The notes below the pieces were generated by a model, which searched no databases, was not told the origin of the DNA, and saw only the letters and a program-made list of their open reading frames with translations. From assembly GCA_002118135.1 (NCBI GenBank), contig BDIU01000103.1:62001-126000 (forward strand): a DNA stretch of 64,000 bases, in the 5' to 3' direction. This stretch comes from Trebouxia sp. TZW2008 (lineage: Eukaryota; Chlorophyta; Trebouxiophyceae; Trebouxiales; Trebouxiaceae). Below are positions 1 through 64,000 of this stretch, one piece after another; the first letter of the stretch is position 1; each line of letters begins with the position of its first letter. The translations under genes and the position numbers were made by a program.

Positions 1-3000
1 CAAGCAGAGCACTCCAAGGGACGCAGCATCACGGGGGGCAGCTGGTGCACACGCCCACTTTGCTGCCAGTCTGCCCAGTGCTTTGGAAGATGATAGCCCT
101 GCAACAGGTTTGTCTGCTCTGCTTTACTGAGTCTTGTCTGTGGGCTGCTTTTCTTCACAAGCAAGCTTGAGTGAGCAGTGGAGAACCTCGTGCGGGATGG
201 CTGGTGCACATGCCCACTTTGATGCAAGTCTGCCAGCTGCTTCAGACGATGAAGGGTCCACACCAGGTCTATCTGGTCTGCACATTTTACTCTTGTGCGC
301 TGACAGCGCTGCTTCACAGTTGTGCATGCAGAATTAATACCCAGAGAGGAGATGGATGAGCAAGCAGGGTTCATGGCTTTGCGGTAATCTACATCTTTTG
401 CATGCAACACATTTGAGTGTTCATGCAGCAAGGCTGTATCGTCATGGCCAGCAAGCAGATAACCCTGCACTGTTAGCTTGTCATGTGTTTGGTCAGACGA
501 TGTTCCTGATGCCCCGCAGGCATTGATATGTCAGCAAGTTTGCAAGTCTGCTTGTCCCTACTTAGGACCCTATACTATGGACTGCATAACTTCTTATACA
601 TGGCAAAGAATTGTTGTCAGCATCCATGCACCATTGTCCCTATGCCTTGGCTGTGTGTCCCTGTTCTGTACTGCAAGATGATGTGCGTGCCCATGCAGCG
701 CCATCAAGGGCAAAACTGGAGAAATCCTCGTCTCTCCCAGCAGCAGAAACAGCCCTCACAGCACCTTGCACGTCGTATCAAGGCTGTTGCTGGCAGATTG
801 TGCACCAATGCTGTTCAACCCAACAGCGTCTATTCATCCTGAAATCTACTGCCAATTGTGATCTTTGCTCATGCAGCGCCGTCGCGGGCTAAGCTCGAGA
901 AGTCTTCTTCACTGCCAGCAGCAGAGTCAGACTCAACAGCGCGCATCATGGCCAGCCTCAGCCGAGCAGCTTCTTCTTCCCACTCCCTTGACTCTTCCTC
1001 CTCAAGCGATGATGCCCCTGGCCCTTCCAGCAAGGCATCCTTTACCTCTCAGAGGTCTGCCAGTCCCTTCACTGCCAAAAGGGACAAGTCCTTCCTGGAT
1101 GTGCAGCGCTTCTTGGGAGACTCACTGTCCAAGTCTGCTAGTAAGGGCAAGTCCTTTGCCAAGCAACTCCAGGTGAGAGGAAACAGTTCTCTGCTGGTGA
1201 GCGCTGACTGGTTGAGGTTGCAGGGTCTGGGCAAAAGAAAAGTTCCTGTGTTTGTAAGCATCATTTGCATTTCTGTTTTCGAGTTGTCATCACCTGTCAA
1301 GATCAGCACTGACAGCTCTTGGTTCCTGAGTGCAATACCCTTCTGAGAACTTTATTGCATGGATAGGTGATGCTGGGGCTGTCAGATCCAGGCAGTAATT
1401 CAACAGCGTCTCCATGTATTCCTGCTTAACCTGACGTGATGATGGCAAGTGACTTGCTTGTTGGGTGTGGTCAGGTGATGATGAAGATGTCCCCTTCAGG
1501 CAGCAAGAGGCATCGCGTCAAGCGCATGTCCACCTTTTCAGGACAGCCTATCTCTGGCATGGACCAAGACGGTACGGCACTACAGTTGACACTCAGTGTG
1601 TAGCATAAATGGCACTGTTCTCATATAGTTCATGTGTATACTGCCTCAGACAAGCGCTGCGCAGAAGGCATGCGTGCACCAGGCAGAAGCTTGCTGAAAG
1701 ACATGATGCTTCCTTACTGTCAATGTTATTCTGTGGCTGGCATGACTAAGCGAGCGCAGCATCCACAAGACTCGTCATTGTAATATCAAGTGCCTGGTGA
1801 CATGTCAGACCTGGGGCTTGTTCTGACTGCAGCATCTGTCAGTACCTGTAAGGCTCAAAGTGCTGCAGTGGACTGCAGATTGGGAGGATCTGCAGACCCT
1901 GAAGTGGGCTCAAACAGTGGACCCTCATCAGTCTGAAGAATGTGAAGTGCTACTAGAGACTTACTCTATGCAGGTGAGTTTGTCGGCTTCCCTTGACTCA
2001 TTGTTGTGCTATCCACTGCAGTTGGTGACAAACCACTTGTGCGGGCAGGGTGGGCGCCGGGTGACGGCGACTGTGACCTTGAAGTGATCAAATGCCATGC
2101 ATGCATCATTGTTAAAGCTGCTTGTGCAATCCAAGATCAACAAAAGCAGCTTGACAAGAACAATGACTGCAAGGCAGACTCACTGCATAAGGCCATGTAC
2201 ACATGCAGGCTGAATTTGCAGTGCATCTCCTCAATAGGTTTGATGCGACTCCTTATGCTTGTTGCTTGGCTACAGCATATTTTCTTCCTTCGGTACCTGT
2301 TTACCAGATGCTTGGTGTTACAGGTTGATTTTCTGATGAGCGGGCTGATGGTGTTGAAAGAGCGCATTGACGCCACAGAGGCCCTCATTGCCATTGACTT
2401 GGACAACCGCAGGAATGAGCTTGTCGCATTCGACTTGGTAATGCTTTCCTCTTGATATCCTCTGCCCGCATGCAGGCAATGTGCCTGAGCAGCCCATCAA
2501 GGTCTTGCAGCACAAAACACAGCCTTGCCTTCTGCAAGATTGCCACCTGCATGTTGCAGCATGAGGAAAAGCGTAGTGATGGCTTATAGGCTTGTGAAAA
2601 TGGTGCTGGCATCATCACCCTCATACCTGCAGCTGCTCATGATGCCTTTCATTGTGTAAAGTTGCTGATTTGAGTGCTGCATCAACTTGGCCAACCATGA
2701 TCAAACACATATCTGGAGCTTTTGCCAATTCTTCCTGGCTATGCAAGACAGTGAGGCGTCACCTGCTGAGGTCGCCATTGTGCTGCAGGTGCTCAGCATT
2801 GTGACAGTTGCTGTTGCTTTTGTGGCAATGGCTGGCAGCATCTTTGGAATGAACTTGTACTTTAATGTACAGACGACGCCTCCAGTAAGTCATCAGGATG
2901 CTAGTGTCGCACTGAGCACTGTCAGTCACATTGACTGCAATTTCGTGTCTGGACTTGACTTGCTCACTATAGCACTGGCAATTTCTCTGGCATGCCCAGG

Positions 3001-3197
3001 CTGCAGATTTTGCATATGCTCTCTCATTTCTGTCAGCACCACTCTGAGTTTGTCAGCAACGCTACGCTGCGCAGGAAGCCTTCTGGGCGTGTGCAACATC
3101 CATAGTCGTAGTGGGACTAGCTATTATGCTGATTATCATGGCTTTTGCCAGGCATAAGAGGCTCCTCTTCATTCCCAAAGCCCACCTGGCACATTGA
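1..3197 (+). CDS. CorA/MRS2-type magnesium transporter, 5' end outside window
   Basis: Exons with consistent phases are 877-1172, 1475-1571, 1843-1973, 2324-2437, 2789-2884 and 3075-3197 (stop TGA). The diagnostic Gly-Met-Asn motif is in the fifth exon (SIFGMNLYF), just after a hydrophobic helix; the last exon gives a second helix and a basic tail (RHKRLLFIPKAHLAH). Upstream come an acidic helix (EECEVLLETYSMQ) and a helix resembling the long CorA/MRS2 stalk. GMN at the end of TM1 is the selectivity loop of this family, which forms pentameric Mg2+ channels in mitochondrial, plastid or vacuolar membranes; which membrane is not shown. The first exon listed is Ser-rich and enters in phase 1, so at least one exon lies upstream. 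Two near-identical candidates end in phase 1 at about 106 and 265. The true start is not in the window. Confidence 0.85.
31..290 (+). repeat. Tandem pair of candidate upstream exons of the CorA gene
   Basis: A stretch around 41-106 recurs around 201-265, offset about 160 bp. Both translate to a similar peptide (GAHAHFAASLP versus GAHAHFDASLP, then an acidic Ser/Asp stretch) and both end in phase 1 before GT. Either could join the exon at 877. A weaker third trace (SDDVPDAP) is near 493-520. Confidence 0.6.
685..945 (+). repeat. Echo of CorA exon acceptor and 5' edge
   Basis: The acceptor and exon edge at 877 (PSRAKLEKSSSLPAAE) occurs 178 bp earlier at 699 with the same acceptor context and the same peptide, followed by loss of similarity. 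The upstream copy does not continue into the rest of the exon, so it is probably intronic or an alternative cassette. Confidence 0.8.
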
Positions 3198-3634
3198 CAT
3201 CGTTTGTATTGGCGATTGTGTTATCAATGCATTTATGGATTGAGATGACACCACACTGTTGTAAGGGTCCATTAAATGGTTGCAACACTCTAGATCTGTG
3301 GTCCATGTCAAACATAATGCAGTGAGCAGCTCAACCAGCACCAGCTGAGACAGAACATGTTGCTACCGCAAATGAGCAGTATTCTTGTGCACATGCCACA
3401 CGTGGAATACTGACTAGCCACTTCACATGCTGGCAGCAGCAGTTAATTCTCAGGTGCCTTTACATCACCTCTGCATTGTATGTTCTGAAACACAGTTTGA
3501 GCAAATCCTGATTTCACTGTCACGAATTGTGCCTAGGAGTCAGGCCTGACAGCACTGAGCCTAAAATGAAACACGCCTAAAATGAAAAACACCCTCCTAA
3601 TGGTCAGTGATTGTCAGCAGTACACAGTACAAGA
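3198..3634. other. Convergent 3' intergenic region, no gene seen
   Basis: This lies between the 3' ends of the CorA gene and the minus-strand membrane protein. A TGTAA, the usual green-algal polyadenylation signal, occurs near 3259, about 60 bp after the CorA stop. No coding signal or RNA gene was recognised. Confidence 0.4.
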
Positions 3635-5138: not shown

Positions 5139-5495
5139 GGCGCTGGTCTGAATGTCAGCACAGGCTTGTTGCTGATAGCGCTTGGCACGATGAGCCGCTC
5201 CCGTTATTGAACCTCTTGCTCACGTGATGCGAAAGTACAGCCGTCGACGTCACTCGTCCGACTCTTCTTCAAATGGTGACTCACCACTGGTGAGACAACA
5301 TTGAGCGCCGGTCTTCTTCTTCTCGGGCTATAGCGATGCACATACAGCGCACTACAAATTTTGCAACTTCAACGTGTTAACTGGTGCTTCTTGCCAGGGC
5401 TGACTTCTTGCAAGCGTCAGCACCCCGCGCGTTCATTCAAAGGCATCAAACGCACAGTGCAACATTGATTTCGTCCATCGCGCCGCGATGCAGCT
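5139..5495. promoter_or_regulatory. Divergent promoter region
   Basis: This 357-bp stretch separates the start codons of the minus-strand membrane protein and GET1. It contains a CACGTG G-box at 5221-5226 and an ACGTCA soon after. Both are common plant and algal bZIP/bHLH target motifs. Function is inferred from position only. Confidence 0.4.
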
Positions 5496-7390: not shown

Positions 7391-9734
7391 TCAACGCTTA
7401 GAGCGTCTCAGGCTTTTCCAGGCCTTCTTGACCTTGATGTGCATGTCAGCACCCCAGAAGATACCTATAAACACCCACAAAAAATGAACAATGGGATAAT
7501 CTTTTTGGTATTTTGTTGCTACATGCAATAAAACAGCAGGCAAGACTCGAGTGTTGCCTGACCTGATCTCAGGAGCAATGCGTTGAGGCAGGGCAAGAAC
7601 ATATGCCTTGCACGGCCATTAAGCAGTGAAATAACGCAGTGCTGCAAAGTAAGCAGCAATGTTGTTCTGATTTCATTCAATACGAGATGAAGTTCCACGA
7701 TGCAAGCAGGCACCAGACCAATTTGCTCATGTACTAAATGGAATCATCAGAACGCCTAGTGGGCAACGAGCAAGCAAGATGGATTCAAAAGACTTAATTT
7801 CAGCACATTTTAGCACAATTCAGCACAGTCTCAAAAAAGCTACATTTGACGGCTAAGCTGCAACTGTGTGCTGTGTAATGTGCGCACAAGTAATTTGGCC
7901 TACCAGTGATCATGCACAGGAAGCCCAAGTAGGTGAAGACAATGGTGAAGAGCCAGCCTGTGAGGCTGAGGCACAGGATGCCGCCCAGGTGACGCTCTGA
8001 GTACTTGCAGTTAGGTTTGTACATAGAGCTGCTAGGCCCCGACCAGATGCCTGAATCTGTAGCAACACAAAATCAATTTGCTTAACCATGTTTGCTGGGG
8101 ATTGCTCTATGTGGTGGCAACCATTGTCAAAAGGAACACTAGCACAGCACAGCACAGCACAGCACAGCACAGCGCAGCGCAGCGCAGCGCAGCACAGCAC
8201 AGCACAGCAGGGCTTGTAGACGGAGCTACTAGGGCCTGACTAAATGCCTAAATCTGCAGCAACATCATATCACCTAACAATACAACACCTTGACAGCTTC
8301 ACACCGCACAGCTGTGCCAACTGGGCAGCACCATTTGCGCTGCCAAGCAGTCCAAAAGCATTTCATAAAGGAACAGTACAGCATGGCACGGTGCGTCCAA
8401 GGGCAAAAGCAGCACTTCTCAAGAGCATGTGTACAACGCTTTGAGCAACCAGAGTGCAGTGGTAAACATGCTGCAGAAGCATAACAAGTATGTGCATCAA
8501 TCCGGACTAAGTCTTGCCGCATCCAGTGCTCAGAGCAAATCAGACGGCTCAGCACATCCAAATCGTGCGGACGTTGGTCTTTGCAGGGTAGCATGCTAGC
8601 GTGTCAAACACGCTACAGAAGGAGATTGGCGACAGACCTTGCAAGACATGGCGAGTCAGGTCTGCCATAACCAAGGGCACAGCCAAGCTCACTAGGTACA
8701 GTGGGCCATACTTCTGCCAATGTGTCCCTCTGCAGAACATCACAACTTTTGCAGACACCACTCCTAAGCAAGAGCTAACATAGTAAAGGACGCATAACAC
8801 TAAAAAGCTTGTAAAACAACACTCCTGTGCAAGAGGTAATATAGTAAAGGACGCAGAACACTAAAAAGCTTGTGAAACAACACTCCTGGACAGAACTACC
8901 ACATTCAAAATAAGGCCCATGTGCATCTTACTTGATCCAAAGGTTCAATTAATGACAGAAAACTTGCCAAATCTTGACACGTAAGCATGCTGGTGATACT
9001 TGCAAAAACAGGTGCACTTGTGTATCATGTGTGATACATGCATGTTCTCACCCGGGCACTGCAATTTTGAAGGCAACATCTTGTGCAAACTTGGCAAGTG
9101 CAGCTGACACCTATGGCAGTTGAGATTTGGGCACTACTATTGATACATGCAGACACGGGTGCACTTGTGCACGACGCATTGATATATGCATGTCCTCACC
9201 CGCGCACTGCAGTTTTCCAGGCTACATATTGTGCAAGATTGGTAAGTGCGGCCAAAGTGAAGCCGAAGCTGATGCTGTGGGAGAAGGACTTTGCTCCTGC
9301 TGTAGCTGAGAGCCCAAGGAACCCAGCTAGCAGGAGAGGCCAACATCAGCTACCCACTGCAGAGTGACATCAAGCTTGTCAGCTGCAAAGCCAAAGTAAG
9401 CCAAAGTGATGGTAGCAGCACAGCAGGCGCGCAGTGCGATTGCACAATCAGCAGAAGTTCGCGCGAAGTGGTGCAGCTTACCGAGAGCGGGCAGAGAGAA
9501 AGCCAGAGTTGCTAAGGAAGCGATTACGCCTTTGTTGTCCGAAGGAGCATCGTCCGCCTCTTCTGGGATACCTCTGTATACACCTGGCTGGCTATACCAA
9601 TCTTGTTGGTGCACGATCTCTCGGGCTGCGCTGCTGCCACCTGGAGCTGCGTGACACGTCAGGGAGTCATTTGATTCATCCTGAGCAGGCAGTAGCGGGT
9701 CGGTTGCGGGGTTCTCCACATCGTGTCGGGCCAT
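7391..9734 (-). CDS. Conserved multi-pass membrane protein, unknown function
   Basis: Five exons (9734-9482, 9326-9200, 8729-8638, 8056-7904, 7464-7391) join with matching phases and GT-AG borders and give 232 residues. The N-terminal 70 residues are polar. Hydrophobic segments follow in exons 1-2, in exon 3 (PLYLVSLAVPLVMADLTRHV) and in exon 4 (WLFTIVFTYLGFLCMITG), then a short basic tail (KVKKAWKSLRRSKR). The motif HW-QKYGP...ADLTRHVLQDSGIW straddles the exon 3/4 join, and that it reads through correctly supports the model. I believe related proteins occur in other algae and protists, but I cannot name a function. Its start codon lies 188 bp from that of the ankyrin gene on the other strand. 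Confidence 0.75.
8009..8275 (-). repeat. Exon 4 5' edge echo flanking a microsatellite
   Basis: The exon 4 acceptor and first codons (8009-8077) are repeated 196 bp away at about 8205-8272, with several substitutions. The intervening stretch is largely a pentamer microsatellite. The outer copy lies in the intron and is out of contact with the exon body. Confidence 0.8.
8141..8209. repeat. CAGCA/CAGCG pentanucleotide microsatellite
   Basis: About 69 bp of uninterrupted 5-bp units are arranged as a block of CAGCA, a block of CAGCG, then CAGCA again. A shorter tract of the same two pentamers (opposite strand) lies at about 36655-36682 in a CDC48B intron. Confidence 0.95.
8760..8889. repeat. 61-bp tandem duplication in intron
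   Basis: Two 61-bp units begin at 8761 and 8822, and a third partial unit starts at 8883. The units differ at a few positions. They lie in intron 2 of the membrane-protein gene next to the exon 3 acceptor side. Confidence 0.85.
9000..9260 (-). repeat. Echo of exon 2 3' end and donor
   Basis: About 100 bp around the exon 2 donor (9150-9255) recurs about 147 bp away at 9003-9110, including the GTGAG donor context. The copy is intronic and is not contiguous with the exon body. Confidence 0.75.
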
Positions 9735-11349: not shown

Positions 11350-14089
11350 TCATGCTTTTGCTGGGACTGTTGTTGGAGCTGCAGGTGCTGCCCCTGCTTT
11401 TGCTCCTGCTCTTGGTGGGGTGCCTGGCCTATTGCCAGCACCAGTCACTGCAAACTTCTGCTTCTTTTCTGCTGGTTTCAATATCTGCAACATCAAACAT
11501 CACATTTGCTCATCAACCCAGTGAGGTGTTGCATGTCAAAAGGATGACCAGATTGCCGTTAAGCATGGATGCTGTACTGGCAAACAGACCGGTACTAGAA
11601 TATCACAACACAGGCACAGAATGCCAACAATCCAAAGGTCATCAAATTGATTGTCCCAGTAAGCAAAGAGAGCAGGCATGCATGTTCGAGAGATCATCAA
11701 ATTGGTTGTCCCAACAAGAAAAGAGAGTAGGCATGCATGTTCAAAGATGACCATAAAGATGATCGCTTGGTAAGGAAAACATATTGCTAAGGGTGTGGAG
11801 ACACTGCAGATGGTGTGTGGCATGCCTGTGCCAGTCAGACTCATTGCATTGCAATCAAATCCATCAGCAAGTTGTCTTCAACACAGCTCGCATTCATGCC
11901 GCAGCAAGCAGATGAGAAGTGCAGCTTATACAGCATAGGGAGGGCAATGTATACCTGGAAAGAGCACATGAGGGTCTCATCAACACTCATCATTGCTCCG
12001 GCATTGTCAAACTCCCCACAGTAGTTGGGCGCTGAAAATATTGTGACAAGCTGCCGCTTGGCAAAGAACTCATAGCCATCCTCGACCACCTGCAACGCAC
12101 AGCAAATACACTCAATGAAAGACAGGAGCTGCAATTGCCGGACTGCAGTGTACACGAGTAGTCATGCTTCAATAAGGTCCAATAAGGCTCAGAGCTGCAA
12201 TGAAGCATGCCTAGCCATGCCATTCGCTTGTTTGACACTGAGCTGCTATATGTTGCAGACAAGATATCCATACAGATCAATGTGCAATAACATGCCAGTG
12301 TTGTCATGACGGCTGAAATGACACAGCATTGCAGCAGATTCAGATGATGGGGCTGGAAGCGCTAGAAATCCAGGCTGGCTCTGCAATGACAGTCGCATTG
12401 TTGTACAAAGTCAGCCATTGCATTGCTCTCCATTGATTACTCAAAGTGAATGCTTAAAGCAGTCTGAAATACCGACCTGATGCGCACGGCAGACCAGGTC
12501 TAGATCATGCTTGGTGAGGAAGTCTGACACACTGTCTGGGCCAAAGGTGTATGACACCCCTCTGTCATTTTCACCCCAGCCCTGAATGTCCTTGTCAGGG
12601 TCTGCCCAAAGCAAGTCACACAGCAGGCCTGTATCTGGCACGTCTGTGGGTCTGGGAATGCGCTTGATCTGTTCTAGGGACTTCAACTCTGGTGACAAAC
12701 CTCCATGCATGCAGAGGATCTGCACAGACAGCTGAGACTTGATTGCAAGAGTTGCTGACCAAGTCCGCTCTTGGGGTTATACAGTTGTGAACGCGTTCAA
12801 ACTGTTCAGCAGACTTGAACTCTGGTGGCAAACATCCATGCACACAGAGAGTCCGCCACACTCAAAACTTGATTGCAAGAATGGCCCACGCAATACAGTT
12901 CAACCCATTCACAACTCTGCACATGATGAAGCTGCACCACATGCTGTTACAGTCATGACTGCTTGCACACCTAGTGATCATGCCTTTGTTGATGACAGCC
13001 AATCAATGAACAGCAAGGCTGCGACAGATGAAAGGCTGCAATAGTCTGGTATGTACAGGCTGTAGACAGTGAATTGAAAAGAATTGAGTGGTCGAGAATG
13101 CGCACCTTCTCATCAACCAAAGCAGCGACTGGCAAACAGTTGAAGCAGTCTGTGAAAGTCTTCCATAGGCGAATGTTATACCGCCGTTTGCACTCGTCAT
13201 AGAACCCATAAATTCTGTTGATGGACGCACACTCATGGTTTCCTCTCAACAGAAAGAAGTTCTCAGGGTACTTGACCTGCATACATTCGTGTGTCTCACA
13301 TGCTTTGTTCAGCAATGCTGCCTAGAGTGCCTGAGTTCAAAAGCGTCTCTGATTCATAGGGTAAGTTCAGGCATATACACATGCAGCCCTGTTCATCACG
13401 GCATGAACGCGGCATTTGACACATGAGATTCTCACACTTGCTCATAGCAACGGAGCATTGACAAGAGACACATTGTCTGCATGCTTCAAGTACAGAGTGC
13501 AACAACTCTTGAGACTTGGCTCCGCAGCCTGAGGTCTCCCATGTGGCAGCTGCAGAGCGCTGGTCCCAGTACAAGACAGTACTGACATGTACCTTGTATG
13601 CAAGCAGCAAGCAGATGGTTTCCAGACTCTGCTTGCCACGGTCAACATAGTCCCCCAAGAACAGATAGTTGGCCTCAGGAGGAAAGCCCCCATACTCAAA
13701 TAATCGCAGCAAGTCTGAGTATTGACCGTGAATGTCACCTAAATAAGAGAAATCAAGTTGACGCAAAGTCGTTATAGGGAGCATAGGCCGGCAAAAACGC
13801 GTTTCTTTACCGCAAATCTTGATAGGGGCTTCGAGCTCGAGCAGGTTGGGCTGACTCATGAAAATCTCTTTCGCTGTCAAACATAGCTGTCGTATCTCCT
13901 GCTCGGTCAGTTGTACTTGCTTGCCTGGCCTGCCGTTTCTGACGTCCAACAGTCGATCGATTATATCGTCCAAGATTGCTTCCTCCTGCAACACACATGT
14001 GCTCTTGACCCTTGGCTGCAATGAGTGCTGTGCCTGCCGATGCATCACTGTAGCCTTGCATGCAGCCTGAAGCCTAGCACACTCACCAT
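11350..14089 (-). CDS. PP1: Serine/threonine protein phosphatase PP1 catalytic subunit
   Basis: Seven exons (14089-14087, 13985-13811, 13738-13593, 13276-13106, 12719-12477, 12089-11955, 11484-11350) close perfectly in frame, giving 335 residues, the usual PP1 length. All metallophosphatase motifs are present in order: GDIHGQY, GDYVDRG, RGNHE, the His in MHGGLSPEL, and [12 protein letters not shown]. These bind the two catalytic metals. The N-terminal PP1 signature ([10 protein letters not shown]) is intact. The C-terminal 40 residues are Ala/Pro/Gly-rich with a TPPR, the site that CDKs phosphorylate in PP1. The start codon is the last three bases of the first exon: ATG directly before a GTGAGT donor. 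PP1 works with regulatory subunits in nucleus and cytosol on cell-cycle and metabolic targets. Confidence 0.95.
11637..11746. repeat. 54-bp tandem duplication in last PP1 intron
   Basis: Two units begin near 11637 and 11691 with a handful of differences. They lie in the intron before the last PP1 exon. No exon sequence is included. Confidence 0.9.
12767..12862 (-). repeat. Degenerate echo of PP1 exon 5 5' edge
   Basis: On the minus strand this reads [20 protein letters not shown], a mutated copy of [20 protein letters not shown] in exon 5, offset about 133 bp upstream. The Gly-to-Cys and Ser-to-Pro changes hit the conserved HGGLSP motif, so it would not make a working phosphatase. It lies in the intron. 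Confidence 0.85.
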
Positions 14090-15326: not shown

Positions 15327-18300
15327 CTAATGACTGCATTCTGACTGCAGTGGTACCTCTGAGTGAGGGCACACCATGATAGGGACATGTTTTGTGTGAC
15401 CAAAGCAGTTGTTCGAAACAACCATCATTGTGAGCAGCACCAGAACTGTGTACAACAGTGCTGTCTTAAAGACCCTTTGACATGCTTGACTCTTGGGCAA
15501 TGCACAGACTGACATGTCAACACATTGAAAATGAGGAACAACAGGACACAACTCACTAGGGTCTGGCACTGCATTGCTAGTGTGCTGTTGTGACTGCCGA
15601 CTGCCGCTGTGTTCACTTGCTTGTGCTGCTCCTGTTGCAGCCAAATCCTGAGCTGTGCCCTGATCTTGACTTTGTACATCCAAGTTGGCAAGTCTAGTCC
15701 GAACTGCAGCCTCTGCATCAGCAGGAGCAATTGAGGGTGACTGAGTGGTGTCATGCTTGAAGCAGCAATGGTTGGGGTGATGTTGATCTACAAAGAACGT
15801 GCACTGACAGCTGCCATTGTTGTAAGGCAATGACAAGCGTTCAAGCACACCACAGTTGAATCGAGAGGAAGGCATCAGCAGTTGAAGGTGACTGCATGGT
15901 GGCATGCTTGAAGAAGCAATGGTTTGGCTGCTGTGAAGCTGCACATGAACTTGCACTGAAAGCTGCACATGAATTTGCACAAGAAGCTGCAAGAAGCTGC
16001 CCTTTGATGTCAGGCAATGGAACGCTGACATGCCGCTCAGCCATAATCTGTGCACTCACCAACACTGACTACGATAAACGAAGACAAATAAAGCAGATAT
16101 GACAAGCAGCGGCAATGGCAAGCGCTCAGGAACAAAATCCACAGCTGGACAGGAATGATGCCAACAGCTGCCTAGCAAAGGCTGTACCTGAGCTTGAAGA
16201 AGTACCAATGGCACCAGCAGGGGAGGTGTTGGGCTGCACCACAGGGTCAGCATGTGACAGGCTGACTGCTGGCACTGCTCGTGGACCCTGCAACCATACC
16301 ACAAACATGTTGCTCTTGTACAAGCTGACTCTGACGCTGATGAATGTATGATCGAATGACTGACTGACTCACTGTATGAATGTATAAATGGGCAATTGAG
16401 TAAATGCATGACCCTGATCAAGCAGTATGAATATGTACAGTTCAGCACGCGTATCTGCAGCAAGGGCATGTCAGCCAGATGCTGCGTAACATCAAGCAAA
16501 GCCAACACAAGCCTTACACCAAAAGACACAATTGGAAGGCCTCAGATGGAGCATAGTGTCCCTTCTCTGCTTGCATGACAATTGTAATGCGGTGCGAAGC
16601 AGAGCCCACCTGACTTTGACTCTGAGCGGCGGCTAGAATGACATCCAGCGCTTTCTGAGACTCGGTAATGCACTCAGAGAAGGCAGTCACCCAGGTCTGT
16701 ACGTCCTCTTGAGACCACAGCTCATGCAGCAGGTCCTTGTGCCTGTCCATCTCCCGGAATTGTGACTGAGAGCTGTCCCGCATGTCAGTGCCAATGGACA
16801 CATATTCCTGTAGCAGAGCAAGCTAGTCAAGACAATTGCATATATTGGTGCTTGCTGCTTGCATGAAAGATGCACACCTGGAATATGGGTAGTTTCTGCG
16901 CCTGCCAGGCAATGGAAAGCAGACAGAGAATGTAAAATCAACGTGGATATTAGCCTGAAATTGCATTTCTGGTGATACAGTTGGGGTTGCTGGTTACTGG
17001 CATTGCCAAGGGCTTCCTTGCTAGCCGCTATCATTTGCAACTGCTCAAACAGCGCTTGCAGGGAAGAAGCGCAGTCTTTCCCATGTTTTCCTTGAGCTTT
17101 TTCTGGTGGTCTGGCTGATGTTGCTGGTTCTTGGCTGGGTCCTCCTTACTGGCCTCACAAATTTTGATGATGTTCCTTGACATAAATTGCAAACAATCAA
17201 GTGCCTCAGCAAAACATTGGACAGATCTGAAGCTGTCTGAGTGTAGTGCTGTCTACCTTGAGCTTCTTTTGATGGTCCAGCTGATGCTGTTGGTTCTTGG
17301 CTAGGTCCTCCTTACTGGCCTCTATCATTTGTAGGTCACGCCCTGTCTTGATGGCTCTTGACATTTTCTGAGCGACATCCTCTGCCTTTGGACCCAGCTG
17401 CAAACCACAGCAAGAGTTCTTGGCGAGATCCCTGACAAGATCAGCAGATGCTGGAGGTGATAGCAGATGTTTGCTTTCAGCCTCTGCACTCCTGCTTGTA
17501 CAAGCAGTGGGAAGGATGCAATGCCTTTGCACAGATCACAGAGAGCTGCAATGCAGCAGGTGATTACTGACGTGTCACCAAATTTGACTTGACGCTGTGA
17601 TAATCAGCTACAGTACAGACAGTCTGTATGACCTTACACTGGGTCTTTAGTAGAGCACTGGGTCTTTGATAGAGTTTGAATGGTGTCCTGTGGCCCCGCT
17701 GTTGGGTCTATTGAGGGACGATAGTGCAGACAGTATACAGTATCACTGCAACAAGCACATTGCTGATGCTGGGGGGCAACAGGACATGCAATGGGTAGCA
17801 AAGCCCAGCAAAGACAGCAGTTGAGACAGATCCTTATGCCCTCATGTATGTTGCGCACCAAGAGGATGCGGCTTAGACTCTGCAGTGATCGAAATGCGTA
17901 TGCTGAGAATGGCAAGCTGTCTCGAGATGCAGCACACCTCTCGCAGAGTGATGAGCTGTGAGTGCAGAACTCGCTCCAAATTAGTCAAGAAGTACTGGGC
18001 AGCTTCAGACAGCTGCTCCCGGGTGAGGCCCTGGGCTTGCCAACCAGAGGGGCCCTTCTGAGTGCCCTGGCTGCTCATCATGCTGTCTCTGAGGGCATGC
18101 AGGCAGTCCAACTGCTCTGCTGTAGCATGCTGAGTGAAGCCGTTGGTGTGGGCTGCTTGCTGCAAGCAATGGCAGAAGCAGTAAAAAAGCATGCAAGGTA
18201 GCTTTCAGTGAGACAGTCAGGCAGTTCAGCCAGAGGAACTCTTCTGAGAGCCCTGGGTGCTGAGCATGCTGTCTCTGAGGGCATGGAGGCAGTCCAGCTG

Positions 18301-34271: not shown

Positions 34272-43842
<9,571 letters not shown>

Positions 43843-47534: not shown

Positions 47535-50500
47535 TCAATTAGTTGCTGCACCACAGCTTCTGAGCAATGACACCATGTTTGCTGCTTTTGGGCCATGATT
47601 GTCATTGCCCACACTCGGAACTATGCGCCTGGGCCGAAGCCAGCTCACAAACTCCTGCAGTTCTGGAAAGCTACTGTGTTCTGAGTACGGAACCTGCAGA
47701 AGCATTGCATGATGTTGAGTGATGTGCCATGCTTACCGTATGTTTTGTGAGATGATGAAGAGACCTCTCTACTTGAGGCCACAGTAAGGGCCACATGGTC
47801 GCTTGACATACTTGTGAAAGGTGGAGAGGACTGTAAAGCCAGCGCCAAACATGACTTGTGCTTGCAGCATGTGCAGTGCGTCAGTCCAACATGCTGGCTG
47901 CTTATAACATGAGCTTGAATGCCTCTGTAACAGCAGTTGACTCATGCAAGTCTGCAAACAGCACCTGGTAGGTGATGAGGGTGCCCTTCTGTTTCCTACG
48001 GCCCTGACCAGTGCGCCCCCTATCTGCAAATCCCAACCAGTCTGATCATCAACTGACTGTCAAAAACATTTCTTGATTCAGCCATACATGCTGTACTATA
48101 TTGTGATGGAGGAATTGCATGCTGTAAATGCACAGCAATATCTGGGCCAACTATATGCCGAGTCAACAGGTTGCTTAGCTTGCAGGGTCGGGTGCATCTG
48201 ACAACTTCACAAACCGTGACGATCAACGTTCATGCTGGGCCACATGAGAGCTGACCAACACAAGGATGGACTAGTGCAAATGTCAAATCATAGCAGGGCA
48301 GCAATGTGATCGTGCACCTTGCTGCCCATTGGGCTGAACCCCACAATGGTGGTGTAGCGGCCTTTGTACAAGTCAAGCAGAGGGCAGACAAATGTCACTG
48401 TAAGAGGGAGGTCACAGCAGAGTCGCAGCGCCACTGTGCACCTTGTTTCTGAGTCCAGCCAGTGGGCTGGAAACCCACTATGGTGGTGTAGCGCCCCCTG
48501 TAGTGCTTCAGCAGGCGTTTCATGCTCTTCAAGGTGACAGACCACAGCGGCACAGCATGCAGGTGGGTCTCCCTGTCATTGCTGGTCAGCAGGGCTAATG
48601 TCTCTGCAGGCAACTCTATGCACTCCAGGATCTTCCGTTTGGCCACGCTCACATACATCTGCATGATGGACACACTTTTGATACATGCCAGTGATTCATC
48701 TGATGGCTTGAAGCAAAATTGCTTCCTATCTGCGCATTTTGACACAATTGCAGACATGCAGGTGAAAGAGCCAACTGGAATCTGTTGATGCAGCTCACAG
48801 TCAACACAAATCACAAGACCATGCCGCTCAACTCATGCTGATGCTGTTACTGAAGCGTCAATGTCGTCTCCTGTATGCATCCACTATTACTTCACCATCA
48901 GCAGTGCTGCAACACACCTTCTGCCTAAGGGCAGCTGCCACTTCAAGGAAAAGCTTCTCCTTGCCAATGGTATACGAGCCAAACAGGAACAGGGTGCGCT
49001 TCTCATTAAAGGACTCTGCCCTCACAGCATCCAGCACAAATCTCAGCACCTGTTCATCACCAGCACAGACCTTATCATGGGCAGAAAGTGAGCCATGCCT
49101 AACACAGAAACAACTTCTCCTCGCCAACAGTATATGACCCAAACAGGAACAGATTGCGTATGTCGTCAAAGGACTCTGCCCTCACAGCATCCAACAGAGT
49201 GCGCTTCTCAACGAAGGACTCTGCTATTGCAGCGTCCAGCACGAAACGCAATCCCTACGCACATCAGCACATAAGCCAGGACTGCATCTATGCACGCACC
49301 ATGGAACTGCTGCGCATGGCAGCAACCCTTCAGAATCTGTCTATTGGCAGCAACCCTTCAGAATCTGTCCTTTGGACACACAATGCTAAATGGTGCAAAC
49401 CTTTTGCTTTCATTTGGTGCAGAACAGATGCGAAACGGATGTGCATGTGCAGGTTCAGATGTTGACGCAGAGATGCAGAGATATCTGGATGCTGATGCAA
49501 ATGCTCAGTAGGCAACATGCAGAAAAGCCAGCCATACCTCTTGTTGCTTGGGGAACACGTATTGTGGCTGGCAGTAGGTGGTATCTAGGACCAGATCCAC
49601 AGCGCCCCTCACTCTCTGGAGACACTCTTCTTCATGCATGCCTGTGTGGCACCTGCAGAGCGTATTACAAAATCAATGTATGCATTGCTTGCAGAGTGTT
49701 AGACAAGTTCGTGGTTTCAGACGCAATGCTGCCGAGTCGTTGCTCTAGCAATGACAAGCTCGATTGGCACAGGACTGACATGTTGATGCCATTTGTTGTG
49801 TTTCACACACAGTCTGTGAGTGCAGATCAGACACCCTGATGCATTGGCATATGAATGACAAATGGATGCTATCTGTCACACCCTACACTCTGTCCTACAG
49901 GCTCCTATGCAATTAGTGGCTAGCACTGCGGCATTGATTGACGCTTGCTTCTGCCTGGCCTGAGAGGGACTGTGACCACTCTGAAAGCCTCAGCCGTTTT
50001 GATTGAAGGAGGGGCTAGCTTCAATGGCAAATCCTTTCCAACAAGTCTGAAATATGTAGCAGGCATTGTCAGTTCAACATGGGAGCACACGCCAGTCACA
50101 TTCCAGTCCCAGCAGCCAGTTGATTTGCAACAATGTCATTGCCATGTTAGGTCAGCTTGAGTGACAAGACTGACCTGCAGTCTCCTGTGTGCAGCAGCGG
50201 CAAGCGGCCAGGAGCCTCAAACAGGATCATGACAGCTCCTGGGCAGTGGTGGGCATCCACAAAGGTGACTGTCACCCCAGCCACCTGGAAAGGGCTGTGC
50301 AGGGGGACCACTTGAAGACGACCCAAGGGCACTTTCAGGCGCTGGTGAACCAGCCGCGCTGTGATAGGAGAGCAATAGATGGTGCCTGCAAGCAATAAAG
50401 ATGCTTTGTCAAGACCGCTTGCAGCTACTGCTGAGTCTGATCAGACAAGCTGGTGTTGCTTTTGGGTGCTGGGTGGCCTAGCTAGAGGGTGCAACCACAC

Positions 50501-53278: not shown

Positions 53279-56200
53279 ATGGCGATGAACGCTGGCACAT
53301 ACAAAGCGCCAATCACAGGGAACACGAAGAAGAAGGCTTTCTTTACCGCAAAGACTCCTAAGGGAGCAGGCGATCATATGGAAGCGCCATTTGTAAGCTT
53401 TCACTTGCAGCTACCCGTTTAAGCTTGCAAGCCAGTCCTTGAGCGGAAGTGTGAGGTCGACTTGCGTTGCCGCAGTTGTTTCCTGATCGTTTCGAGGCTC
53501 CTGTGGCGTCGGTACATTTCAACAGCCTCGGTAAGCGCAACTGTCCATTCTGTGCCAGCCTTGCTACTGCCTGCCTATGCTCAAGTAAGTCATGGACTTA
53601 TGCTGACAGCTGGGGAGGTCCTCTCAGCAGGACATTGCAGAGCTGTATAGTGCTGCGTCAGGCGACTGTACCACCTATGTGATGCACTCTGTGCTGCTGG
53701 CATCACTTCGCCCTTTCTTTGCAGGGGAACCTGTGTATGGAATGCCTGACAGGCCGATGCAGACAAGTGTAAGGTAGCAGCAGCTCACCACAAGCAAATC
53801 ACCCAACCTCTCATACCTGCGATGCATGCACATCTGGGCAAGCAGTCTCAGCACCGCCCTTGCTTGACTTGTTTGACGAGCAGCATCAATGCCACTTGCA
53901 ATAGGTTCAGCGTTTTGCCCTGGGGATGTAAGTTGCAGCCACACCTGGTGTCCTGGAATCTGCAGTGTTTAGCTGCCATTTCATCGGAACTGTCTTCTTG
54001 TTTGTTTGTTAAATACGCCTAACCCAACAAAATAACTACTTTGGCTTTGAGACTGCTGCCCAGTACTGGCATGATGTGGACGTAGTCTGGCTTTTCTGTT
54101 TCTTCATGCAATACAGGTGTATGTATCTTTGCTGTTGAGCAGGCACATTTTTGAGAAGCAGAAGGCAGACGAGAATGAGCGAGCAGCAAAGCGCATGATG
54201 GACAAGCCTGGTGGGCGCAGGCATGACGCCTTCACTGATTACCACCAGCGCATCCAGATGGGAGATGAAGTCCATGGCTATGACGCTGAGGCTGTGAGTC
54301 TCTTCATCGTCCCTTGTAGCAAATGCCTTTGGTTGCCAGACACCTCAACCTGTGCTTTCAGGCCAGGAAGGCCAATGAATCACATCTGGCTCCCCACCCC
54401 GGACTGTGAATTATGTTGACCAGCAATGAAATTCTCATGGTTTCTGAGTCTACGTGCTGTGTTGACAGTCACAGCGCCGTGCATGAAAATAAAGGTTACC
54501 GTCATTGCAGGCTTGTTGTCCTGATGCTGTGTGACGTCAGTGTGTGACTTACAGAACTAGTGCTTGTCAAGCACTAGTCAGGAACGCAAGTGCATCTTTG
54601 CAGCACTTGTAGTTGCAATTGCCTGTTGTCTCATGGATGCGTTCCTTGCAACGACAAAGCTTGGTTTTGCTGGAAGAGGAGAGGTCTTGCAAGGGTAAAG
54701 CGTACATTGTGATTGCAATTGCCTGCCGTCTCATGAAGGCTTTCTTCAGATGACAAGCTTTGCCATGCTTACAGAGGAGAGGCATTGCAAGGATGCTGTG
54801 CAGATTGTGATTGCAATCGCCTGTGGTCTGATGAGCGCTTTCCTTGCAATAACAAATTTTGATGTGCTTGCAGAGAAGAGGCATTGCAAGGATACAGCGC
54901 ACGCACCACCCAATCTTTGCCGGCAGCTTGGAGACAACCACTTTCCGTCCTGTGGCAGGGGCTTCTGAGCCTGAAGGCCCTCCAGCTGCTGCACAAATGG
55001 TCCCTGCCCCTCAAATGGAACCATCTGCAGAAGCAGTGGCACAGGTACAACATGAGCTGACTGCGCCTTGCATGACCGCAAGCAAGCACACATCACTATA
55101 TTACCTGATGGCTATGTCTCAGTCAATATTCTCATAGTCAATCAGTCTGCTGATCACCTGTATGACCTGACACAGCAGCAACTGCTGTCTAATGTAATTG
55201 CCAGCTGCGTGGGCATCATTACACTGATGAGTTGTGCCAAATTTGCATGCACTCCTGCATCTTACAGCTGTCAATGCATTGTAAAGCAAACTTTACATAT
55301 ATGTTAGGGCTTGTGCTACCCGCATTTGCTGCTCTTGAGCTGACAGATGTCAATTTGCATGTCAGTCATTGCAGTGCATGCAGATGTGCTAAGCACGTTG
55401 AATTACTCATGCATACCAAGAAAGCACACTTGCAGAATCATGTACAGTGACTGCATACACGTATGCAATTGTTGCTTCAGGCCAACAACCCAGTGAGGAG
55501 CAGAGCGCATGACAATGCAACCGGCACCATAGCAAGCGGCCTAGACATGTGGCATGATGCCCACGGCACCTCCAATGCTGCGCGGTTTGCCTCACATTCA
55601 GCCTGGGAAGTGCAGCATGACCAGTCAATTGTACTAGAACAGGCCAGGCAAGCTCTCTGGCGCTTGTTGTATAGTGCGCAGCTGCAGAATCAGTTTGCTG
55701 AACACACAGCATTGACTATGCATGTGATGCAGGTTTGTAGCTCTGGTTTTGTCCAAGGCCCACCCGTCTGCACCCCATGCTGCTGTGTGCAAAACATGTC
55801 TTAATCATAGCCATGTCTGGCAGGTCTTCACTCTGTGCTGTGATGTGACATCAGCCACTGTGTGTGCCTTATGATAGTTGGCAAATCTCAGCCGTTCAAG
55901 GACTGCAACAGCAAGTCTGGGAAAGCAATGTCGAGCTGCTGATGGTGTTGAATACAAGATCAGTATGATTAGTGCCTAGTTATTATCAAACTAGGTCATT
56001 CTGTCATGGCACTTCCTTGATCAGAAAGTGGCATTTTCTTTTTTGCAGGGTGGAGGCAAAGGCACATAAGTTGGACCAATACAGAAGGGAAGCACATGGT
56101 GTCAGGCAATTGGAACAGGACCTCAGCCTGGAATATCCTCATGGATTGCCGGTAAGCATGTGCATTGTCAGCAAGTAGCCTTGTTCCAAAGTACTCTCAT

Positions 56201-60000: not shown

Positions 60001-63000
60001 TAGCACACCAGCAGCAGTTGCACAGGGCCAACTTAACACGCAGCCTGCAGCAGCTCAGCAAAAGGCTGCTGCTCAGTCTGAGCCGCCAGCTAGCACCAAA
60101 GCAGCTGTCACAACAAAGCCAGCTGCTGCAAGCAAACAAGATGCAGGGCATAGCACAGCTGTTGCTCAAAGCAGTTCCTTGTCAGGCAAGGTTGATAGGC
60201 AGGCAGCCCCTGTTGCACCACTGCGTGAAGTCACCCCGCCATTACTGAGCAGTGCCAGCAAGGGTCGGCCCCACAGCGTCAAGGCACGAAACCCAATCCC
60301 TGGTCTAGGATCTCCTGACCTCTCTGCTTCAGACGAGGACGTGCCCAGTAGCTCAAAGGGCCAAGCTGCAGCCCTTTCTGCAAGCGACCAGAGACCGAGG
60401 CCACTGTCAGTCTTGAACAGTGCAGCCCCACCTCCTCCACCAACGCTGTCTGCTCCATCTCTCCAAGCCACTGCTGATCCTTTGCCTCCTGAGCCATCCA
60501 GCCCCAAGCCCTTGCCCATTGCATCCTCAGGCAGGGACCACCTTGCCAATGCCCAAGCTGGGCTGCAAAAGGGCTTCAGCAGCCGTTCGTATTCTGGTGA
60601 GGACATGGACATTGATGAGGAGCCTGCTAGAGAACCGCTACCCCCACTGCCCACTGAGCCTTTCCCCACAGGCTTGGAGCTGGCCACCATTGACACCAGT
60701 CAGCAGCTTGCAACCATCTCTGCAGAGGATAGAGATACCCTGATGGAGGAGCTGTCAGGCATCAACGTAAGCTTTGCCTGTAATTGCTACAGTTTGCAAA
60801 GCGCCACAGCTGCCCATTTTGTCATTTTGCATCCTCTGTGCACCTGCAACATAGCCATTGCTTTGCCCCTTCAAAGCTGTCAAGGCATGTTCAGACCTGC
60901 AAACGTCCCTGTCGGTATGCTGTGTGTGAGGAAACTGCTTGGGCTCAGAATGTACTTGGGACATGTTGTGTTGGCACTCTTACACAAGACTGGTCTTTGT
61001 GCGCTCTAGCTGCATAGCTGAGCGTCGGCAACAGCTGACTCACCGTTCATCCACGCTGTGTAAGTAGCTACATCGATGCAATCTAAGTCAACGCAGCCTA
61101 CTATTGTTTTGCTTGATCTGACCCTGCATGCTGATGACTACAGCAAGGTATCCAAAACATGCAGAACGCTCATAAATAAAACACACTCTTAAGGTCCTGT
61201 ACAGATTTCCTGGCTAGGGGCTTCTCAGTTTGAACATGCAGCTACTGCGCCTATACTCTCTGTGCTGATGCAGGCACGTACGGACGAGCTGCGCATCCAG
61301 AAGCACTTTCTAAACGACATGTTTGCAAGAGTGAAGCAGGAGTACCTTGAGCGGCGCCTTAGGCAGCAGCAGATTGAGCAGCTGCTGGGCTATAAGCCTC
61401 ACATGGCTGCTTTACCAAGCACAGCTGCTGATGCGCCAGGACCCTCAAGTGCCCTTGCTTTACGTCAAGCTTCTGAAGGGCCTTCAGAGCCTCAACAGGC
61501 TTCCCCTGGTAAGGCTGGCTCAACCCTTTGAGCTGCTGCATTATGGCTGCAGTGTCTGAATTGAATGCTGATACCTAGACGCAAGACGTTGTTGCTTTCT
61601 CAGGCTGCTTGTACTGCAACTGGAATCAGTTCCTGAATGTGCTGCAGAATGTACGCAGTGTCTGTGCGTTTACCATTCTGTTGTGCAACATGCAGCTCTG
61701 CATATCTGCTGGTCCTGATTAGTGCCTTACCCATTTCAAGGTTGATGTTTGTGTTGCATCACAAGCCTTGAGAAGGTTGTGCAGATGTCTCTGGTAAGAC
61801 GACAGGAAGCTTCCCTGATCAGCATTTGCTTATCTGTTTGGTTTGTAAAGCCTGACCATGCTGGTTGCGCAGGTGATCACAAGCAGAGCAGAAAGGCTGA
61901 GCTGCAGTCACGTGCTGAGCTGCACAAGGCTCGCCTAGACGCGCTGCAGGCCAAGCAGCGTCAGGGCGCTGTCACTGCTGCTGACACCGCTCCCCAGATA
62001 GGCATGTCACCCATGACTTCAAAGGCTATTGTGGACCTGACAGCAAAGCAGTCCCCACTTGCCAGGCAGTCTACAGCAACAGTAGCTCCTGCCCCTGCAC
62101 CATTTGCTTCAGCTGCGCACAAGGCAACTGCTGGAGCCCGTCAAGCAACAGCTGCAGCAGGAAGTGCAGCAGCCAAGGCTGCATCTGCAAAAGCAACTCC
62201 TGCACAAGGCGCTGCAGCAGCCAAGCCTGCACCTGCACCTGCACAAGCAGCTTCTGCTGTTGTTAGCTTGCAGCCTACACAGCATCAGTCAGCAGTTGGT
62301 CAGTCAAAGGCAGCAGCTCAAGGGCTTGTGAAGCAGCCTGTTGGCCAGTCAGTGACAGCGGCTCAAAAGCTTGAGAAGCAAGCAGACAGCCAGGCAAGGG
62401 GCCAATTAGTGACAGCAGCTCAAGGGCTTGAGAGGCAGGCTGTCAACCAGTCAGTAGCAGCAGCTCAGAAGGCTGAGAAGCAGGCAGACAGCCAAGGGAA
62501 GGGTGCAGCAAGCGTGGGCACCAGTCAGCTGCTGCCCAAAAGGAAGCGCTCCAGGTCCAGGTCTCCAACAGGCACAGTTGATGATGGCAGAGCCAGGGTT
62601 GGCAGCCAGAGGCAAGCTGCCAGCTCTTCTCATCGGCGGGCTACCAGGTGAGAAGCGTCACAGCTGTGCACTTGGTCTGAGACTTCACAACTTGCAATGC
62701 ACTTATGATTTACTGCAAAAGATGAAGCACTGCATGAAGCTTTTAATGTTTGCAGCAATTCTCTTGCTCTGCTGGCACTGCCATCAACAGAATTCCATGC
62801 ACTGCAGCTATAAACGTCTTTGACTGACCTGTCGTTCAAGACTTCAGAAGTAATGATGCACAGGCTGTTGCATGGCAGCAATGCCTGAGCTACAGTCCAG
62901 GCTTATGGCAAGCCTTGGTGAGCCTATGCCATTACCTTGAGGCATGTTGAATGATAGCACTCGCCAGACGCATGTTTTGGCCTCAAGCGTTTGCTGTATT

Positions 63001-64000
63001 CAAACCTGCCTCAAGGATGTAGCACAGGAGTAACAATGCATGCCATAAGCCATACATGTGTTTCAAGCTCTGGAACTGGCTGCAGAAACTCTCAAAGATG
63101 GCTTCGCCCATGTTGCCAAGGTCTTGCCAGTCGACTGTCTTGCAATGACAAGGTCACCTGTCACAAGGAGGTCATGAAGGCTTTCATTGGTGTTGCTGAG
63201 CTGTTCATAGTTGACTCTCTTGACAAGTCAACTTCACCTGTGACAAGAAGATCACGGTCACCACCCTCCACGAGGGATTGTTAATTTTACTGGGATGTTG
63301 AGTGCCTTGTCAGGTCAAGCTCGCCTGTCACCAAGGGGCCAATGTCATCATCTGCCAAAATCTATGTCAATGTAATGAGGTGTTGGCTTATTTGTCAGGT
63401 CCAAATCACCAGTCACAAGAAGGTCCAGGTCGCCACCTGCCAAGAGGCCTCGTCAGCAGCAAGCACCTGCCAGAAGCCGGCAACGCAGCATGAGTACCAC
63501 CTCTTCTTCTTCCCTGTCTCCTAAGCGCCGCCGCCGTCGGCACTCTTCCTCTTCATCTCCATCTCCAGTCAGGCATGGGTACAGGCACAGCAGGCGGTCT
63601 CCCCCTAGGCACAGGGTCCGCAGAAGCCCTTCCCCAAGGGGCAGATCCAGAAGGCACAGCCCTGCCAGGAAGCCCAGCACCAGAAGGAGCCCTTCTCCGT
63701 TGGCCCAAAGGCGAAGGGCAAGCAGTCCCAGTCGGCTTGTGTTGAAAGGCGGACCCAGAGGCAGCCCAGTGTCTAGGTCCAGGCCAGAAAAGCGTCACAC
63801 AGGGAGGGCCAGGTCACCCTCAACCAGCAGAACGCCTTCGCCCACCAAGAGGCAGACTGCAGCTGTGCAACCTGCCCAGCAGAGACGGCATGACTCCCCT
63901 CAGAAGGCAGTAATGCGGCAATCATCCCCTGTTGCAAAACCTAAGGCTGACACAGGCAGACTTGCCTCAGGATCTGTAGCTGCAGCCAAGTCTGATGCAC
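57080..64000 (+). CDS. Large Ser/Arg-rich nuclear protein, 3' end outside window
   Basis: Exons 57080-57206, 57310-57846, 58211-58338, 58505-60766, 61274-61508, 61873-62647 and 63399 onward keep phase throughout (over 1500 residues so far). The start is Gly/Phe/Asn-rich (MAGRQFFPGFGNNFQPAPDF), then an acidic patch (FVNFDDDDEDF) and a short coiled coil (LEDLKRRIAEKERQMKAKRQ). The 754-residue fourth exon is almost all Ala/Ser/Pro/Lys/Gln. Exons 5 and 6 add helical pieces (RVKQEYLERRLRQQQIEQLL; AELHKARLDALQAKQRQG). The last exon is an RS domain (RRSPSPRGRSRRHSPARKPS). This composition fits a nuclear-speckle or exosome-adaptor scaffold; the N-terminal acidic style slightly recalls ZFC3H1-type proteins, but no zinc finger is visible in this window. 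Not assigned to a family. Confidence 0.78.
63130..63420 (+). repeat. Three upstream echoes of the RS-domain exon start
   Basis: The RS exon edge at 63399 (SKSPVTRRSRSPPAKR) has copies near 63154 (RSPVTRRS), 63235 (TSPVTRRSRSPPSTRD, then stop) and 63321 (SSPVTKG). Spacing is about 81-86 bp, the shortest of the exon-edge echo series in this window. Confidence 0.88.

What the first reader, a model, noticed from the sequence alone, without database searches (positions are those of the whole stretch)
1..64000. Pervasive tandem 'echo' duplication of exon edges into introns
In nearly all spliced genes here, a splice site with a piece of exon and of intron has been copied in direct tandem. The copy touching the exon body is always the one that encodes the conserved protein. 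Acceptor-side echoes lie upstream of the exon, donor-side echoes downstream, on either strand. I count more than 20 sites in 64 kb and saw no inverted exon-edge copies. Offsets measured here include 160, 178, 196, 147, 133, 187, 186, 165, 128, 134, 150, 121, 163, 179, 167, 193, 144, 174 and 124 bp, so most fall near 120-200 bp. Introns have clearly grown by this route. I know of no description of a whole genome with splice-site-centred echoes at this density. A nucleosome-sized replication or repair unit is one possible cause (inference).
Basis: partly seen in the sequence, partly recalled or inferred. Interest (0 to 1): 0.92.

Follow-up and report, generated by a model that had tools for sequence, protein, structure and literature searches.

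The report
Exon-edge echo duplications in algal introns
In this green-alga genome, short stretches of about 150 bases that straddle the ends of exons have often been copied head-to-tail into the neighbouring intron, where the extra copies decay like junk DNA; this happens more often than chance placement would give, and shows one way introns can grow.

Summary
Confirmed, with caveats. The window (part of a 68.5 Mb photosynthetic genome) is full of short, local, direct duplications. So are 17 fixed-position 10-kb stretches elsewhere: together 86 clusters in 234 kb, smallest copy spacing 55-289 bp in 85 of them. Copies are mostly 70-90% identical; near-identical long ones are missing.

I built a self-trained gene model and a full simulation null. 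Of 78 events, 57 overlap an exon edge, 17 are noncoding and 4 lie within exons. The null gives 36-44% edge events; 57 of 74 (77%) are seen. Outside the window it is 42 edge to 10 noncoding. The excess survives the detection models that fit best; extreme erosion models could largely absorb it.

Echo copies look neutral. The exon copy is constrained (mismatch by codon position 0.129/0.098/0.251), and echo splice dinucleotides survive at about the neutral rate (GT 36 of 47, AG 33 of 44).

Most likely: DNA-level duplication of roughly 100-220 bp during repair or replication, mostly in the past, preferentially made or kept at exon edges. Local duplications including splice sites are known; in nine paper searches I found none described with this density and edge bias. 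No related species or RNA data could be tested.

The parts
41..281 (+). Donor-side echo: exon copy 41-122 (predicted exon 27-107), echo 200-281, offset 159
688..925 (+). Acceptor-side echo: echo 688-747, exon copy 866-925 (exon 877-1172), offset 178; the 118-bp spacer is not alignable to the flanks
8994..9252 (-). Donor-side echo of predicted exon 9200-9299, offset 147
12653..12880 (-). Acceptor-side echo of predicted exon 12495-12719, offset 133
17084..17322 (-). Donor-side echo 17084-17156 of predicted exon 17257-17397, offset 166; by eye the echo's donor GT is lost
18041..18553 (-). Acceptor-side array (2.7 copies, period about 187) upstream of predicted exon 17938-18159
19806..20161 (-). 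Acceptor-side echo of predicted exon 19675-19834, offset 289; a dispersed repeat of about 156 bp (19890-20045) lies in the spacer
20699..21197 (-). Donor-side array (3.3 copies, period about 147) downstream of predicted exon 21156-21550
35281..35578 (+). AAA-ATPase (AFG2/CDC48/NVL type) exon end 35281-35428 and its downstream echo 35431-35578, offset 150; the frame is open through both copies, so which donor is used is uncertain
36279..36470 (+). Acceptor-side echo 36279-36349 of predicted exon 36412-36583, offset 121; the echo has a stop codon
37607..38652 (+). Array (period about 166-197, five or more copies) leading into the AAA exon near 38566-38731; counted as noncoding because under 10% of it is predicted exon
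38846..39218 (+). Array downstream of the same AAA exon (period 163; peptides resembling LLHGPPG by eye); counted as noncoding by the gene model
41096..41375 (+). Acceptor-side echo 41096-41217 of predicted exon 41289-41477, offset 158
41402..41802 (+). Donor-side echo 41624-41802 of the same predicted exon, offset 222
42543..43077 (+). Three acceptor-side echoes (acceptors near 42553, 42682, 42831, by eye) of AAA exon 42999-43264, each keeping CAG at the acceptor; the gene model wrongly takes 42553-42891 as an exon
48946..49245 (-). Upstream echo 49106-49196 of predicted exon 48918-49049, offset 160 (the aligned part stops 13 bp inside the predicted exon end), plus a partial third copy 49193-49245
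54607..54902 (+). Array (period 98-100, 2.9 copies) ending in predicted exon 54874-55044
62311..62503 (+). Repeat of 102 bp (34 codons) wholly inside a predicted exon, in frame
8755..8888 (.). Duplication not at a predicted exon (61 bp); others of this kind: 15726-15966, 23256-23784, 24243-24596, 39656-40093

Best explanation
The genome carries a population of old, short, local direct duplications, each made at DNA level by copying a segment of roughly 100-220 bp next to itself. When the segment overlaps an exon end, the copy still joined to the exon body stays under selection and the displaced copy becomes intron and decays neutrally, seen as an echo. Exon-edge events exceed random placement 6.8-fold in raw rate per bp and, by my reckoning, about 2-6-fold after correction for visibility. 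SHOWN: directness, locality, size range, spread over the sampled stretches, neutral-looking echo, constrained exon copy, edge excess under most nulls tried. INFERRED: the copying step. I favour fill-in and joining of staggered breaks, or ligation of unprocessed replication flaps, because the copies are direct, local, mostly capped in size and unselective between donors and acceptors. INFERRED: the excess at edges reflects preferential retention (recombination back to one copy would often put echo mutations into the exon) together with some preference in origin. INFERRED: activity peaked in the past, since near-identical copies are absent.
For: Direct local copies in the window and 17 other stretches: 163 direct matches in 234 kb, 121 within 300 bp and 5 beyond 1 kb. 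Edge excess: 57 of 74 versus 136 of 382 and 87 of 197 in simulation with re-annotation; 42 of 52 outside the window. Two other locus sets lean the same way without significance: 8 edge to 3 noncoding, p=0.06; 4 to 2, p=0.16. Among doublets aligned over 0.75-1.3 of their offset, 16 edge to 5 noncoding. Exon-versus-echo mismatch by codon position 146/1130, 111/1132, 282/1125, and intron columns of contiguous events 0.21, all fitting about 0.11 substitutions per site per lineage with one free copy; the same without the loci picked for echoes. Echo splice sites kept at about the neutral rate. Offset modulo 3 even in edge events (23/27/19). Only 2 of 78 duplicated stretches match any other sampled locus.
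Against: About 40% of edge events align over less than 60% of their offset; simple abutting duplication at the fitted age predicts 1-9% unless large indels are common. Of 29 spaced events, 8 spacers show some similarity to a flank (z of 3.5 or more) and the rest little or none, so some events may be spaced rather than tandem. Only 4 of 20 homology-anchored kinase exons are touched, versus 17.9% of equal-length noncoding segments. Some erosion settings reach edge:noncoding ratios of 2.2 and 2.6. Gene models are ab initio, without RNA, and at least one echo stretch is miscalled as exon (42553-42891). Nothing tests the molecular step.
Confidence: 0.6

Rival explanations
1. Pure ascertainment: duplications strike anywhere at random, but in noncoding DNA both copies decay so they vanish, while exon-edge ones stay visible because one copy is under selection.
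For: Edge events are more identical (median 81.0%) than noncoding ones (75.3%) at what looks like a similar age. Strong-erosion settings reach edge:noncoding ratios of 1.4-2.2 and 2.6 in 1 of 16 settings; a 5-fold visibility advantage would make 57 of 74 unremarkable (p=0.16).
Against: Settings that fit identity and aligned fraction best give ratios of 0.57-0.94 (older ones 1.1-1.6) against 3.35 observed. Among matches of at least 86% identity the split is still 11 edge to 3 noncoding. Among doublets aligned over most of their unit, where erosion is not limiting, it is 16 to 5.
Confidence: 0.22
2. Splice- or exon-targeted origin: breaks, nicks or replication-fragment junctions are positioned at exon edges (exon-bound nucleosomes, R-loops, transcription), so duplications are born there.
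For: Edge excess of 6.8-fold per bp raw; 45 edge doublets to 6 noncoding doublets; sizes near a nucleosome repeat (recalled).
Against: No data on chromatin or breaks; donor and acceptor sides about equally hit (47 and 44 site alignments); the aligned exon part has about the length random placement gives (median 59 versus 65-80).
Confidence: 0.3
3. Echoes are functional: alternative exons, decoy splice sites or recursive splicing sites kept by selection.
For: About three quarters of echo splice sites keep GT or AG; at 688-925 the echo peptide is unchanged by eye.
Against: That retention is close to the neutral expectation of about 79% that I compute from 0.11 changes per site; mismatches at codon positions 1 and 2 are what one free copy gives; echoes contain stops (9 in 1080 codons) and gaps; offsets are not biased to multiples of three.
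Confidence: 0.06
4. Assembly artefact.
For: Runs of N occur in two stretches (gaps or withheld letters), and absence of near-identical copies could reflect collapse of such repeats.
Against: Copies differ at 10-30% of sites with a coding pattern of substitution, which misassembly does not create.
Confidence: 0.03
5. A mobile element family (introner-like) that spreads copies.
For: A dispersed repeat of about 156 bp lies inside one echo pair.
Against: Only 2 of 78 duplicated stretches match another sampled locus, one of them through that repeat (the sample is well under 1% of the genome). Units at 18041 and 20699 had no match in a genome-wide search, although only 39 of 2199 candidates were scored.
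Confidence: 0.03

Closest known systems
Repair-mediated duplications (Pace et al. 2009, PMC2671141; abstract, part 1 of 3 of the Results and passages read)
   Same: Local duplications, proximal ones with mean 162 bp and median 147 bp, some including splice sites; declining activity over time; two duplicated exons without evidence of constraint.
   Different: There 4 of 824 donors were partial exon/intron, spacing had an apparent peak near 1.2 kb (which the authors say may be an artefact), one exon copy was in opposite orientation, and pairs within 50 bp were excluded. Here most events touch exon edges, spacing is mostly under about 220 bp and direct.
[quoted passage not shown] Lehmann 2010 PMC2891723, passages)
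   Same: Tandem duplication including splice signals; the potato RdRp case duplicated an intron-exon structure.
   Different: Those make new introns or sequence; here existing introns lengthen and the mRNA is presumed unchanged.
Small tandem duplications from CST/Pol alpha-primase fill-in at staggered breaks (PMC8355091, passages)
   Same: Direct small tandem duplications produced by DNA repair.
   Different: Shown in mouse and human cells at induced breaks; no exon preference in the passages I saw.
Flap products of FEN1-independent Okazaki fragment maturation, including duplications with an internal sequence between units (PMC12633238, passages)
   Same: Tandem and spaced local duplications, like the contiguous and spaced classes here.
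   Different: Yeast mutants and treated mammalian cells; size and exon preference not in the passages I saw.

Membership tests
Local direct (tandem) duplications | Two copies in the same orientation, close together | tested here: met
   121 of 163 direct matches within 300 bp, 5 beyond 1 kb
Local direct (tandem) duplications | Copies abut, unit length equals offset | tested here: inconclusive
   67 of 96 events align over at least 65% of the offset; 29 do not
Repair-mediated duplication (SDSA type) | Breakpoints with microhomology, filler or deletion against an empty site | not testable with these tools
   No related genome held; copies too diverged for exact breakpoints
Tandem-duplication intron gain | New intron bounded by duplicated AGGT, offset equal to intron length | not tested
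   Considered by eye for 36279 only (echo not next to the upstream predicted exon); not counted
Introner-like element | Same sequence at many unlinked sites | tested here: not met
   2 of 78 duplicated stretches match another sampled locus; units at 18041 and 20699 unmatched (not exhaustive)
Mutually exclusive or alternative exons | Both copies under coding constraint | tested here: not met
   Pooled codon-position rates and stops fit one free copy; single events could differ

The most novel reading that the evidence does not exclude
A duplication process that is born preferentially at exon edges (through exon-positioned nucleosomes, replication-fragment ends or transcription) has rewritten the introns of a whole algal genome, leaving about one echo event per five exons and forcing the splicing machinery to ignore many intact decoy sites.
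Probability: 0.3. Interest if true: 0.82.

Novelty: new variant of a known kind. Interest (0 to 1): 0.58.

Why it matters
How introns lengthen and where cryptic splice sites come from are open questions. A genome in which roughly one exon in five carries a decaying copy of its own edge (57 edge events for 298 predicted exons in the sample) gives a countable record of one route, and many natural tests of how splicing tells a true site from a neighbouring near-copy with intact GT or AG. If origin rather than retention explains the bias, it ties a mutation process to exon structure.

Tried and rejected
Ab initio gene models: the first two versions over-fitted (thousands of tiny exons) and were discarded; one search is used throughout. 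The shift nulls (50 of 86 versus 36 +/- 4; 69 of 97 versus 50.8 +/- 4.5) also show excess but treat copies less properly. An early split suggested no excess among young matches (9 of 23 at 85% or more span a predicted splice site). Of the 14 others, 7 are under 50 bp and 4 overlap an exon without containing a site by the margin used; counting exon overlap with length 50 or more gave 14 of 18 (all loci). I suspected that echoes were constrained because some lacked gaps; counting rejected it (34 gap openings per 539 mismatches in exon columns, 66 per 697 in noncoding events). I suspected that spacers were inserted elements; 5 of 29 had other matches in the sampled loci. RNA families and tRNAs in the window: none found. 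One protein search gave one relative over 8% of the query. Contraction-protection as the cause of retention is my own idea, untested.

No control eukaryote was available, so unusual density is judged only against simulation and recalled knowledge. Paper searches behind 'not found described': (open-licence library only).

Rows dropped: L001 (overlaps the window) from all counts; L021, L022 (picked because their kinase matches already hinted at echoes) and L032 (lies within L020, no event in either) from one set and from the recount (65 edge, 20 noncoding, 5 exon-exon; codon rates 0.129/0.096/0.254; GT 34 of 45, AG 30 of 40). include L021 and L022. Edge events with more than 30% exon in both copies were left out (54 used). 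Splice sites aligned to another predicted site of the same kind were left out of the tallies (6 donor, 18 acceptor alignments).
Full report
What the window is. It lies in a 68.5 Mb, 527-contig assembly. Light-harvesting protein exons are present (47 matches), and the best solved-structure match of one such exon is a CP26 protein, so it is a chlorophyll a/b phototroph; green alga is my inference and the species is unknown. One window gene is an AAA ATPase resembling AFG2, CDC48 and NVL proteins.

The observation. Self-comparison of the window gave 45 near direct matches, none far, and 7 inverted matches. Together, 234 kb hold 86 clusters covering 29.7 kb; the smallest offset in a cluster is 55-289 bp in 85 of 86. 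Of 163 direct matches 121 lie within 300 bp, 37 at 300-1000 bp and 5 beyond 1 kb. Identity lies mostly at 70-90%; of 78 events of 50 bp or more, 3 are at 90-95% and none above 95%. The phenomenon is therefore spread over the sampled genome, direct, local and old.

Gene models. A self-trained model converged on donor CAG|GT(A/G)AG and a T-rich acceptor TGCAG|G, with 392 exons in 284 kb, median exon about 137 bp and intron 348 bp. Two earlier attempts failed. That most exons touched by duplications are real is supported by the codon signal: mismatches between exon copy and echo are 146/1130, 111/1132 and 282/1125 at positions 1, 2 and 3.

Is it centred on exon edges? Of 78 events of 50 bp or more in the 234 kb, 57 are edge events (at least 10% exon in one copy, not over 90% in both), 17 are noncoding and 4 lie within exons. 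I inserted simulated duplications at random, let them decay with the exon copy constrained, re-ran detection and gene prediction, and classified them the same way. This gave 136 edge to 246 noncoding at a younger age and 87 to 110 at an older one, so 36-44% against 77% observed. Noncoding inserts were miscalled as edges in 10 of 234 and 4 of 94 cases, so annotation bias is small. Per bp of target the raw ratio is 6.8 in all 234 kb, 8.7 without the window, 4.1 in the window, and 3.2 in each of two gene-targeted sets that are not significant alone (p=0.06 and 0.16).

Visibility. Edge duplications stay visible longer. I varied age, indel rate, indel size and synonymous rate in 11 settings and simpler ones in 16. 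The two that best match observed identity and aligned fraction give edge:noncoding ratios of 0.57 and 0.94; two older ones with a low synonymous rate, which sits badly with the codon pattern, give 1.1 and 1.6; observed 3.35. Extreme settings reach 2.15 (misfits the aligned fraction) and 2.6 (1 of 16, misfits identity). If the visibility advantage were 3-fold the excess would still have p=0.001, at 4-fold 0.03, at 5-fold 0.16. Among doublets aligned over 0.75-1.3 of their offset, where erosion matters least, 16 are edge and 5 noncoding. A homology-anchored check found 4 of 20 kinase exons touched, against 17.9% of equal-length noncoding segments. This does not separate the hypotheses, because noncoding segments count both copies while verified exons count only one; the 4 in 20 agrees with 57 events per 298 predicted exons.

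What happens to the copies. In contiguous events the echo has about 0.11 changes per site (codon positions 1 and 2) and intron columns differ at 0.21, about twice that, as expected when one exon copy is constrained and everything else is free. Echo codons include 9 stops in 1080. Echo donor GT is kept in 36 of 47 and acceptor AG in 33 of 44 non-ambiguous alignments, close to the 79% I expect with no selection. Offsets in edge events are spread evenly modulo 3 (23/27/19). Leaving out the loci picked for echoes changes little. So there is no pooled sign that echoes are used, and no sign that selection removes their splice sites; single echoes could differ.

A loose end. In 29 of 96 events the alignment covers under 65% of the offset, often exon plus a few intron bases. 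Of these spacers 8 show some similarity to a flank and the rest little or none (eight examples). Frequent large indels can reproduce this, and one case (19806-20161) holds a dispersed repeat in the gap. Spaced copying by repair remains possible; FEN1-related work describes duplications with an internal sequence between the units (PMC12633238 passages).

Mechanism. Direct orientation, short range, a ceiling near 220 bp (41 of 45 edge doublets lie at 100-222), arrays in noncoding DNA, and similar donor and acceptor frequency argue for a DNA-level process rather than splicing intermediates or mobile elements. Fill-in joining of staggered breaks (PMC8355091 passages) and flap ligation are candidates; size also resembles a nucleosome repeat (recalled knowledge). 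Whether edges are favoured in origin or in retention is open.

Precedent. In human, 824 proximal repair-mediated duplications (mean 162 bp) included 4 partial exon/intron donors (PMC2671141). Tandem duplication creating introns is known (PMC3443670, PMC4974935, PMC2891723; passages). In nine paper searches I found no description of exon-edge duplications at this density. I file it as a new variant of a known kind.

Noticed in passing
window 19890-20045: A dispersed repeat of about 156 bp with more than 30 other copies at 76-89% identity in the genome, on both strands (a capped list); no tRNA or Rfam match.
   Followed up: partly
window 40278-40444 and 62900-63051: Long imperfect palindromes (about 150-167 bp); similar ones occur in L002, L005, L009 and L012.
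   Followed up: no
the 234 kb sampled: No tandem copies over 95% identical among 78 events of 50 bp or more, which suggests a past burst or collapse of young repeats in the assembly.
   Followed up: partly
L024 1716-2650: A kinase gene with several downstream copies of its DFG-to-APE exon, some frame-shifted (seen by eye in the translations).
   Followed up: no
window 35281-35578: The exon copy is followed by GC while its echo is followed by GT, and the frame is open through both; the true exon end may be the echo's donor.
   Followed up: no
window 14656-14848: A stretch of about 190 bp with 80-89% matches at two other loci (C49, C354).
   Followed up: no
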